A DNA stretch of 64,000 bases from positions 89,139 through 153,138 of the forward strand of contig JAQCAB010000003.1 of the NCBI GenBank assembly GCA_027622375.1, written 5' to 3'. The notes under the pieces are model-generated. The model made no database searches, was not told where the DNA came from, and was given only the letters and a program-made list of their open reading frames with translations. Positions 14,377 to 16,928 of this stretch are shown piece after piece. This stretch comes from Bacteroidota bacterium. GTDB taxonomy: Bacteria; Bacteroidota; Ignavibacteria; UBA10030; UBA8401. Position 1 is the stretch's first letter. Every line of letters starts with the position of its first letter. The translations under genes and the position numbers were made by a program.

Positions 14377-15933
14377 TTATTTTGCAATTGCGATTGATCT
14401 TTTTTCTCTAATTACTACAACTTTAATTTGTCCGGGATATTCTAATTCTTGTTGAATTTTTTTTGCAATGTCTAAAGCCATTTGTTCAGCCATCATATCA
14501 TCAACAATATCATGTTCAACAATAACTCTAATTTCGCGACCAGCTTGAATTGCGTAAGTTTTTTGAACACCTTTAAATGACGATGCGAGAGTTTCAAGTT
14601 TTTCTAATCGCTTTGCATATCCTTCAACTGATTCTCTTCTTGCGCCAGGTCGTGATCCACTTATAGAATCCGCAGATTGAACTAAAGAAGAAATTGGATG
14701 CTCCATAGGAATATCATCATGATGTGCACCAATTCCATTTAAAACAATTAAATGTTCACCATATTTTTTTGCAAAATCCATTCCTATTATTGCATGCGGA
14801 CCTTCAATACTTTTATCAATTGTTTTTCCGATATCGTGTAATAATCCCGCCCGTTTTGCAAGAGTTATATCAAGTCCAAGTTCTGCCGCCATAATTCCAC
14901 AAAGATGTGATACTTCAATACTATGCTGTAGTAAATTTTGACCGTAACTTGTTCTAAACTTCATTTTGCCAATATGACGGAAAATTTCTTTATGTGCTCC
15001 GCCCAATCCAACTTCAACAAAAGTATTTTCACCAACACGAAGTGCTTCTTCCAATAATTCTTTTTCAACTTTCGAAACTACTTCTTCAATTCTTGCTGGA
15101 TGAATTCTACCATCAGAAATTAATCTTTCAAGTGAAACTCTAGCGACTTCTCTTCTAAAAGCATCAAATCCAGATAATATTACAGCTTCAGGTGTATCGT
15201 CAACAATAACATCAACTCCAGTTGCAGCTTCAAGCGCGCGAATATTTCTTCCTTCCTTCCCAATAATTCGCCCCTTCATTTCATCACTTTCTAAATGAAG
15301 AACGCTTACAGTAGTTTCAACTGCATGATCAGTTGCAGTGCGTTGAATTGCCTGAACAATAATTTTTTGAGCTTCACGTTTTGCTTCTTCTTTTAAGTTA
15401 TCCCGAATTTCTTTTAAACTTAGAGCTGCGTCAGTTTTTGCTTCCTCAATTAAATTTTGAATTAAAAGTTTTTTTGCCTCTTCCCGAGACATTCCACTTG
15501 CTCTTTCGAGTCGTGTATTTTCTTCCGCTATTAAATTATCAAGTTCTTCAGTTTTTATTTGAGCAGTTTTTTTCTTTTCCTCTAAATCTGTTTGATTAGT
15601 TTGAAGTTCACGCTCTTTTTTATTTAATAACTCAGCACGCCGTTCTAAATTTTCTTCTCGCCCATTTAATTGTTTTTCGTAAGCTAAATGTTTTTGTTTT
15701 TTTTGATTTGCATCAATATCATACTCATGCTTTTTTTTATGCCATTCTTGTTTTACTTCATTTGATTTTTGTTGTTTTATATTTTGAGCTTCTTTTTCTG
15801 CTTCAGATATTATTTTTTTTGCTCTTTCCTCAAGTCTTCCAACTTTTGAAACATTAATTCTCGATTGAAAACTCCAACCCAAAAAAACACCTATAATTAA
15901 ACTTATAATTATCAAAACCACATTTGCATCCAT
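14377..15933 (-). CDS. rny: Ribonuclease Y
   Basis: N-terminal TM, long coiled coil, KH motif GRIIGKEGRNIRALE and HD domain LLHDIGKT. Start placed at ATG 15933 (MDANVV) after GGAGGA, not the GTG at 15960. Confidence 0.95.
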   Translation of the reverse strand: MDANVVLIIISLIIGVFLGWSFQSRINVSKVGRLEERAKKIISEAEKEAQNIKQQKSNEVKQEWHKKKHEYDIDANQKKQKHLAYEKQLNGREENLERRAELLNKKERELQTNQTDLEEKKKTAQIKTEELDNLIAEENTRLERASGMSREEAKKLLIQNLIEEAKTDAALSLKEIRDNLKEEAKREAQKIIVQAIQRTATDHAVETTVSVLHLESDEMKGRIIGKEGRNIRALEAATGVDVIVDDTPEAVILSGFDAFRREVARVSLERLISDGRIHPARIEEVVSKVEKELLEEALRVGENTFVEVGLGGAHKEIFRHIGKMKFRTSYGQNLLQHSIEVSHLCGIMAAELGLDITLAKRAGLLHDIGKTIDKSIEGPHAIIGMDFAKKYGEHLIVLNGIGAHHDDIPMEHPISSLVQSADSISGSRPGARRESVEGYAKRLEKLETLASSFKGVQKTYAIQAGREIRVIVEHDIVDDMMAEQMALDIAKKIQQELEYPGQIKVVVIREKRSIAIAK

Positions 15934-15945
15934 AAATCCTCCATT

Positions 15946-16172
15946 AAAAAAAATCCGCACAAATCAACATTCGTCTAGTGACATGAAAGAACCCTTTCAA
16001 TTTCACTTTTGGTGTGTTCCGAATCGTTTCTTACTTCCACAGATTGTGCAAAATGCACAATACTAGAATTAACTAGTCGAGGCCTGTAATATGACGTTAA
16101 CGAGTAACACTCCGAATTTATTACTTATTCGGTTCTTTATGTAATAAAGACGATGGCTGACAGCGCGGATTA
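15946..16172 (-). ncRNA. ssrS: Structured RNA between zapA and rny, candidate 6S RNA
   Basis: Nested helices AAUCCGC/GCGGAUU (16165-16171 with 15952-15958), UCGUCU/AGACGA (16148-16153 with 15971-15976), AAAGAACC/GGUUCUUU (16131-16138 with 15986-15993), internal hairpin UUGUGCA-UUU-UGCACAA, then a U8 tract; no plausible ORF. Confidence 0.68.
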
Positions 16173-16177
16173 TATAC

Positions 16178-16522
16178 TTATTTATTTTCATCTGGATCTA
16201 AATTTTCATCACTCGTTTCATCTTTTGCCGGTTGAATTGGCAAATATGAATCCATATAGTTTGTCATTTTAATTAATTCATCTTCCAGAAGCGTTTTAAT
16301 ATTTTTAGCAGTTTCTCTTTCTTTGAACAAATCTTCAGTAATGTTTAATGCCGATAAAACAGAAACAGTCAACGGCGGTTGATCTGGGATTTGTTTATGC
16401 ACTACATCAATCATAGAATCTACGTAATGTGCAATACTTCTCGTAAATTCTTCGCTGTCACCTCGTAATGGGTATTCTAACCCAAAAATTTTAACTCTTA
16501 TACTTTTTCGTTTCTCAGTCAT
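16178..16522 (-). CDS. zapA: Cell division protein ZapA
   Basis: SIRVKIFGLEYPLRGDSEEFTRSIAHYVDSMIDVV...SVLSALNITEDLF. Confidence 0.9.
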   Translation of the reverse strand: MTEKRKSIRVKIFGLEYPLRGDSEEFTRSIAHYVDSMIDVVHKQIPDQPPLTVSVLSALNITEDLFKERETAKNIKTLLEDELIKMTNYMDSYLPIQPAKDETSDENLDPDENK

Positions 16523-16523
16523 T

Positions 16524-16928
16524 TTACGAAATATAATTATTTAATTTATCTAAAACGTCTTCAATCTCTGCTTTAAATTTAACTCTTTCATTTTGCGAAA
16601 AAAATACACCACTAGAAATTTTTTCGTTTGCTTCGATTAATTGATCTCTTAATTTTTTAATTTCAGTACTTTTTAAGAATAAAGAATTATTTACATCACT
16701 TAAATTAGTTTCACATTGCTGTAAATTATTATTTATTGTAGAATTTTCTTGTTGCAATGCAGTTAAAGAATTATTTACATCATGTAAATTAGTTTCACAT
16801 TGCTGTAAATTATTATTTATTGTAGAATTTTCTTGTTGCAATGCAGTTATTGTTGCACCTGCAATTGTAATCTTTTCCCAAAGATTTTCTAAAAGTACTT
16901 TTACATTTTCTTCAGATTCACTCGGCAT
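16524..16928 (-). CDS. Small coiled-coil protein (ZapB-like) with internal duplication
   Basis: 134 aa heptad-rich; 28-aa repeat TALQQENSTINNNLQQCETNL[H/S]DVNNSL twice in tandem; between pheT and zapA. Confidence 0.7.
   Translation of the reverse strand: MPSESEENVKVLLENLWEKITIAGATITALQQENSTINNNLQQCETNLHDVNNSLTALQQENSTINNNLQQCETNLSDVNNSLFLKSTEIKKLRDQLIEANEKISSGVFFSQNERVKFKAEIEDVLDKLNNYIS
16681..16848 (-). repeat. Tandem duplication, 2 x 84 bp, in frame
   Basis: 16681-16764 and 16765-16848 differ at only 2 adjacent bases (82/84 identical). Confidence 0.97.

What the first reader, a model, noticed from the sequence alone, without database searches (positions are those of the whole stretch)
15943..16175. 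Rod-like structured RNA between zapA and rny, probable 6S RNA that may also act as the rny leader
The 217-bp gap has no plausible ORF but folds as three co-linear helices with nearly symmetric internal loops (11/12 nt and 9/9 nt), a large central region and internal hairpins. It ends in AUCCGC/GCGGAU plus U8. The length, closing stem, open central region and a position next to zapA fit 6S RNA. The U8 tract runs directly into the rny Shine-Dalgarno (UUUUUUUUAAUGGAGGAUUUAUG), so termination of the RNA and expression of rny may be mutually exclusive.
Basis: partly seen in the sequence, partly recalled or inferred. Interest (0 to 1): 0.75.

Follow-up and report, generated by a model that had tools for sequence, protein, structure and literature searches.

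The report
Divergent 6S RNA upstream of rny
The gap between the cell-division gene zapA and the RNase Y gene holds the bacterium's 6S RNA, a known type of small RNA expected to block RNA polymerase, in a form so diverged that the standard search model misses it here but finds its close relatives in the same gene slot.

Summary
The zapA-rny spacer (minus strand, about 16170-15946) encodes a rod-shaped structured RNA. It is almost certainly 6S RNA (ssrS). Rfam models give no hit on the window copy itself. However, a profile built without the window's genus matches it over its full length (92.8 bits, E 2e-27). Rfam 6S (RF00013) hits five relatives, two above the curated cut-off, all exactly in the zapA-rny spacer. 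Across 53 relatives 96.6% of paired cells are standard pairs and 21 of 37 pairs show compensatory changes. A covariance model from these RNAs finds a locus in 110 of 198 genomes of the phylum, overlaps 33 of 34 RF00013 hits there, and scores two of four tested 6S-Flavo RNAs, which also sit just before rny. The gene order zapB-like-zapA-6S-rny is therefore phylum-wide.

Beyond a routine member: a conserved alternative hairpin that competes with helix P2 and, in most relatives outside the window's family, an rrn-like boxA before the 6S gene. That rny expression and 6S termination exclude each other is unproven; the tight spacing is common in the window's family, not general. Expression and polymerase binding were not testable.

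The parts
15946..16170 (-). 6S (SsrS) RNA gene, about 217-225 nt including the U-tract; exact ends inferred
   Evidence: R1 covariance-model hit 15947-16170 minus, 156.6 bits, full length (R1 includes this sequence); profile without this genus 92.8 bits, E 2e-27; fold z -3.76
16163..16170 (-). closing helix P1, 5' strand AUCCGCGC
   Evidence: pairs with 15953-15960; 5 of 8 pairs have compensatory changes in 53 sequences
15953..15960 (-). closing helix P1, 3' strand GUGCGGAU
16131..16138 (-). helix P2 5' strand AAAGAACC (inferred pRNA template side)
   Evidence: pairs with 15986-15993, 96.4% of cells paired; template role inferred from E. coli and B. subtilis 6S
15986..15993 (-). helix P2 3' strand GGUUCUUU
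16114..16130 (-). 5' strand of the central bubble (promoter-bubble mimic, inferred)
   Evidence: unpaired in the consensus structure
16117..16148 (-). alternative hairpin UUUAUUAC (16148-16141) / GUAAUAAA (16124-16117), competing with P2
   Evidence: 8 bp; conserved with compensatory sequence change in Ignavibacteriales; predicted P2:hairpin balance 0.48:0.27 in the window
16106..16113 (-). apical-arm helix P3 5' strand GGAGUGUU
   Evidence: pairs with 16011-16018 AACACACC; relatives show compensatory changes in P3
16011..16018 (-). apical-arm helix P3 3' strand AACACACC
16043..16061 (-). terminal hairpin AUUGUGCA-uuu-UGCACAAU
   Evidence: MFE fold
15946..15953 (-). U8 tract at the 3' end, T-rich in nearly all relatives
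   Evidence: five T columns at 90% or more
15938..15942 (-). rny Shine-Dalgarno GGAGG, 3 nt after the U-tract
   Evidence: sequence
14377..15933 (-). rny (RNase Y)
   Evidence: RNase_Y_N 9e-47, HD, KH
16178..16522 (-). zapA
   Evidence: PF05164, 50 bits
16524..16928 (-). coiled-coil protein, ZapB-like (below the Pfam cut-off)
   Evidence: PF06005 E 3.5e-5, 24.6 bits against a cut-off of 31.5

Best explanation
The spacer encodes the organism's 6S RNA. It folds as a rod whose large central bubble mimics an open promoter. By analogy with E. coli and B. subtilis, it would bind the housekeeping RNA polymerase holoenzyme and hold it when nutrients are short. Polymerase would then copy a short product RNA from the P2 5' strand and adjacent bubble (template around AAAGAACC, 16131-16138). 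That would break P2 and release the enzyme. Shown here: homology to the 6S family, the structure, synteny and single-copy status. Inferred: polymerase binding, pRNA synthesis, and that the conserved alternative hairpin tunes the opening of P2. In this genus rny starts 13 nt after the U-tract, so rny mRNA most likely arises by read-through or processing of a zapA-6S-rny transcript, as for ssrS-ygfA in E. coli (inferred).
For: (1) RF00013 hits in five same-family or same-order relatives at 55.7, 47.7, 40.8, 40.0 and 38.3 bits (cut-off 46.4), all in the zapA-rny spacer. (2) A sequence profile with the window genus left out matches the window RNA end to end, 92.8 bits, E 2e-27, and also matches the RF00013-positive loci L075 and L077-L079, which were not seeds. 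(3) Covariation: 96.6% of cells paired, 21 of 37 pairs with double changes, 0 of 500 shuffles as high, slid controls 38-48%. (4) Model R1 finds a locus in 106 of 119 class genomes and 110 of 198 phylum genomes, almost always a single place, and coincides with 33 of 34 RF00013 hits in the phylum. (5) Known 6S-Flavo RNAs sit 50-130 nt before rny in Flavobacteria, downstream of zapB-like and zapA genes, and R1 scores two of the four tested at those exact places (E 1.6e-5 and 3e-4). (6) 6S follows zapA in beta- and gamma-proteobacteria too (PMC7641849).
Against: No Rfam 6S model scores the window copy itself, even at E up to 10. The strongly conserved ACCCACYGUG of the 3' strand is altered in this genus. 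There is no expression, RNAP-binding or pRNA evidence for any Ignavibacteria. R1 was trained on a set that includes two loci scoring above the RF00013 cut-off, so its overlap with RF00013 is fully independent only outside the order (mainly family f29 and others of the phylum).
Confidence: 0.96

Rival explanations
1. The element is mainly a cis-acting leader of rny: a folded 5' UTR in which RNase Y or a terminator controls rny expression, not a free small RNA.
For: In the window the U8 tract runs into the rny Shine-Dalgarno with no room for a separate promoter; 13-21 nt spacing recurs in about half of the family.
Against: The spacing is 30-158 nt in many relatives while the RNA is unchanged. 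In one Kapabacteria group the RNA lies about 900 nt before rny. The conserved features are those of 6S and are hit by RF00013. A dual role is not excluded.
Confidence: 0.12
2. It is a 6S-like RNA with a different partner, such as an Ms1-type RNA that binds core RNA polymerase instead of the holoenzyme.
For: 6S-like rods are not all functionally equivalent: Ms1 is structurally related but binds core RNAP (PMC9130861); binding cannot be tested here.
Against: RF00013 is hit above its cut-off in relatives, and the position matches 6S-Flavo. 6S and pRNAs are experimentally supported in Bacteroides (PMC7366714).
Confidence: 0.03
3. Chance structure of an AT-rich intergenic spacer.
For: Free-energy z-scores alone (-3.8) can mislead.
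Against: Compensatory change in 21 of 37 pairs, invariant motifs in 53 relatives, recovery across the phylum.
Confidence: 0.005

Closest known systems
6S / SsrS RNA (Rfam RF00013)
   Same: Rod with closing helices, large central bubble and apical arm; 217-260 nt; follows zapA; model hits relatives of this RNA above the cut-off at the same locus
   Different: The window copy scores below detection; Ignavibacteriales forms add an alternative hairpin between the P2 side and the 5' bubble, and a variable apical insertion
6S-Flavo RNA (Rfam RF01685)
   Same: Same gene slot (zapB-like, zapA, RNA, rny); two of four tested loci are also scored by the Ignavibacteria model
   Different: RF01685 does not hit the window or any of 60 relatives (its controls were silent there, but it hits Flavobacteria); shorter modelled region; lacks the alternative hairpin
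E. coli ssrS-ygfA locus
   Same: 6S directly after zapA and co-transcribed with a downstream protein gene (PMC7641849)
   Different: Downstream gene is ygfA/fau instead of rny; E. coli relies on a 3'-bubble hairpin for release (PMC8876501)
B. subtilis 6S-1 RNA central bubble collapse helix
   Same: Alternative pairing of the bubble linked to opening of P2 (PMC8876501)
   Different: There the 5' bubble pairs with the 3' strand of P2; here it pairs with the 5' strand of P2 or the bases just upstream of it

Membership tests
6S RNA (RF00013) | Covariance-model score above the curated cut-off for the window copy itself | tested here: not met
   No hit at gathering or at E up to 10; none in the own genome
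6S RNA (RF00013) | Covariance-model score above the cut-off for orthologues at the same locus | tested here: met
   55.7 and 47.7 bits against 46.4 in L075 and L007/L076; three more at 38-41 bits; G065 at 47.1 bits
6S RNA (RF00013) | Rod structure: closing stem, P2, large central bubble, long apical arm | tested here: met
   Consensus structure with 21 covarying pairs
6S RNA (RF00013) | Length about 180-260 nt | tested here: met
   224 nt here; 215-299 nt in relatives
6S RNA (RF00013) | Single copy and no other 6S in the genome | tested here: met
   R1 hits one place in G000 and in nearly all genomes (extra rows are the reverse strand of the same place); no RF00013 hit elsewhere in 60 relatives
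6S RNA (RF00013) | Genomic context next to zapA | tested here: met
   Pfam ZapA with a ZapB-like gene before it in the window, in a family f29 locus and in a Flavobacteria locus
6S RNA (RF00013) | Binds housekeeping RNA polymerase holoenzyme and templates pRNA | not testable with these tools
   Needs biochemistry; pRNAs reported for Bacteroides 6S (PMC7366714)
6S-Flavo (RF01685) | RF01685 model score above cut-off | tested here: not met
   No hit in window, own genome or 60 relatives
6S-Flavo (RF01685) | Positional orthology | tested here: met
   6S-Flavo hits sit between zapA and rny; R1 scores two of four such loci
Canonical intrinsic terminator at the 3' end | Short G+C-rich local hairpin directly before the T-tract | tested here: not met
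   0 found; the T-tract follows the long-range P1 stem

The most novel reading that the evidence does not exclude
Ignavibacteriales 6S RNAs carry a built-in two-state switch, P2 against a 5'-bubble hairpin of about equal predicted stability, that gates pRNA-driven release in a way not described for E. coli or B. subtilis. In most lineages outside the window's family their synthesis is also coupled to the rRNA Nus antitermination machinery through a boxA placed between zapA and the 6S gene.
Probability: 0.3. Interest if true: 0.6.

Novelty: new member of a known kind. Interest (0 to 1): 0.36.

Why it matters
It places 6S RNA in a part of the Bacteroidota-Chlorobi group where standard models rarely find it: RF00013 passes its cut-off in 1 of 198 phylum genomes and RF01685 in 9, while the new model hits 110. 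It indicates that zapB-like-zapA-6S-rny is an old gene order in this phylum. Together with zapB-zapA-ssrS in Proteobacteria, this hints that the zapA-6S link is ancient (inference). It also points to a possibly different release switch and a possible boxA link between rRNA and 6S synthesis, both directly testable.

Tried and rejected
A cmscan of the window and of the spacer gave only chance hits: SNORD73, PhrS and snoR35, all far below cut-off. RF01685 gave nothing in 60 relatives; its 14 control genomes were silent too, so I searched the wider phylum, where it does ring in Flavobacteria. A sigma-70 promoter scan found nothing above chance near the 6S start; the minus-strand TATAAT at the 5' end overlaps the RNA itself, so it is not a convincing -10 for this start. 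A first regex extraction of cores and a first script for the alternative hairpin failed on pattern errors and were replaced. The alternative hairpin is not general: it is weak or absent in the Kapabacteria group, family f29 and 6S-Flavo loci, so I call it an Ignavibacteriales feature. Wehner et al. 2014, the main 6S survey, is not in the library, so I could not check which of these loci were already listed there. Literature searches for 6S with boxA, and for Chlorobaculum 6S, found nothing relevant.

Full report
WHAT IS THERE. The window comes from a 1.73 Mb draft genome (G000, 48 contigs) whose nearest named relatives are Ignavibacteria and other Bacteroidota-Chlorobi MAGs. On the minus strand the order is pheT-like, a 134-aa coiled-coil protein that resembles ZapB (PF06005, E 3.5e-5, below cut-off), zapA (PF05164, 50 bits), the spacer, and rny (RNase_Y_N 9e-47, KH, HD). 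The spacer RNA starts AUCCGCGC at 16170 and ends GUGCGGAU plus U8 at 15946. Then follow GGAGG (15942-15938) and the rny AUG at 15933. The minus strand folds to -66 kcal/mol, z -3.76, 0 of 200 shuffles as low.

IS IT 6S? No Rfam family scores the window copy. I therefore went to relatives. tblastn with rny and zapA found the same neighbours and a spacer of similar size in about 40 distinct loci, with clearly conserved motifs in the spacer. The Rfam 6S model RF00013 scanned over 60 whole relatives gave five hits, two above the curated cut-off (55.7 and 47.7 bits against 46.4). All five lie in the zapA-rny spacer and nowhere else. A profile HMM seeded without the window or its sister genome then matched the window RNA from model position 1 to 248 at 92.8 bits (E 2e-27). 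It also matched the RF00013-positive loci L075 and L077-L079, which were not seeds either. So the window RNA and the Rfam-recognised 6S RNAs are one family.

COVARIATION. In an alignment of 53 relatives the consensus rod has P1 (8 pairs), P2 (8), P3-P6 in the apical arm, and a large bubble between P2 and P3. Of all cells 96.6% are standard pairs, 21 of 37 pairs have changes on both sides, the covariation score is 0.326 against 0.148 for shuffles (0 of 500 as high), and slid controls drop to 38-48% paired. The window genus has its own compensated P3 (GGAGUGUU / AACACACC) where many relatives have GGGAGUUCG / CGAACACCC.

DISTRIBUTION AND POSITION. A covariance model (R1) finds this RNA in 106 of 119 genomes of the class and 110 of 198 of the phylum, almost always at a single place. 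RF00013 rings in 34 of the same 198 genomes, one above cut-off; 33 of the 34 places coincide with R1 hits to within a few tens of bases, by comparison of the two tables. R1 training sequences come from the window's order and a few close MAGs, so hits in other families such as f29 are independent of training. RF01685 (6S-Flavo) rings in a different set of 21 genomes. Four of those loci were opened: in each the RNA lies just upstream of rny, behind ZapB-like and ZapA-sized genes, checked by Pfam for one of them (ZapA 70.8 bits). R1 itself scores two of the four at those exact places (E 1.6e-5, 3e-4). Position and sequence model agree that these are orthologous 6S genes. In beta- and gamma-proteobacteria 6S also follows zapB-zapA (PMC7641849), so the link may be ancient (inference).

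HOW IT LIKELY WORKS. By established 6S biology the bubble mimics an open promoter, the holoenzyme is trapped, and a pRNA copied from the P2 5' strand and adjacent bubble unwinds P2 and frees the enzyme (PMC8876501). Bacteroides 6S is expressed and yields pRNAs (PMC7366714). For the window the template would be around AAAGAACC (16138-16131). This step is inferred; nothing here shows binding or pRNA.

AN EXTRA, CONSERVED SWITCH. Within the window's order the 5' bubble can pair with the 5' strand of P2 or the bases just upstream of it (window UUUAUUAC/GUAAUAAA, 16148-16141 with 16124-16117). The longest Watson-Crick helix averages 7.2 bp against 4.2 for shuffled bubbles, with 38 of 53 sequences at p<0.05. 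Swapping bubbles between sequences drops it to 5.4, and 0 of 5000 permutations reach 7.2, although the helix sequence differs between groups. Predicted pair probabilities are balanced, P2 0.44 and hairpin 0.45 on average, 0.48 and 0.27 in the window. It is weak or absent in the Kapabacteria group, family f29 and 6S-Flavo loci. Known release elements are a 3'-bubble hairpin in E. coli and the collapse helix in B. subtilis (PMC8876501), so this looks like a lineage-specific alternative. No chemical probing exists, and the shuffle and permutation controls do not fully remove relatedness.

THE rny IDEA. In the window and about half of its family 13-21 nt separate the model end from the rny start; elsewhere it is 30-158 nt. 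The T-tract is conserved, but no ordinary intrinsic terminator precedes it; it follows the long-range P1 stem. In the tight arrangement rny must be read through the 6S gene, processed from it, or started inside it. That is comparable to ssrS-ygfA in E. coli. Strict mutual exclusion is possible but untested.

boxA. In most relatives outside the window's family a [TC]GTTCTTT motif lies 25-45 nt before the 6S 5' end, between zapA and the RNA. All ten 16S leaders that could be read carry the same GTTCTTTGA motif 98-149 nt before the 16S start, which is the expected rrn boxA. This suggests Nus-factor modification of the polymerase that makes 6S, a point for experiment. The window's own family lacks it.

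VERDICT. Firmly a member of the 6S family by homology, structure and position; ordinary in kind, diverged in sequence, with two features that a 6S specialist could test. Whether individual Ignavibacteria loci were already listed in the 2014 6S survey could not be checked.

Noticed in passing
Relatives, e.g. L021, L025, L030, L046, L050, L073, L075, L079-L098 (zapA-6S spacer): A boxA-like [TC]GTTCTTT lies 25-45 nt before the 6S RNA in most Ignavibacteria outside the window's family, matching the boxA of their 16S leaders.
   Followed up: partly
window 16117-16148 and the same place in 53 relatives: A conserved alternative hairpin competes with helix P2; predicted occupancy of the two states is about equal across the set.
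   Followed up: partly
window 16524-16928 (minus); L144-L147, L141, L138, L133: A small coiled-coil ZapB-like gene precedes zapA across the phylum, so the order is zapB-like, zapA, 6S, rny; the Pfam ZapB score is below cut-off in the four copies scanned.
   Followed up: partly
L059, L060, L061, L068: In one Kapabacteria group the 6S RNA is about 900 nt away from rny, so something is inserted between them.
   Followed up: no
G000 (window genome) and G001: No 16S rRNA gene was found in these two 1.7 Mb genomes, probably missing from the draft assemblies; the genomes are about half the size of their relatives.
   Followed up: no
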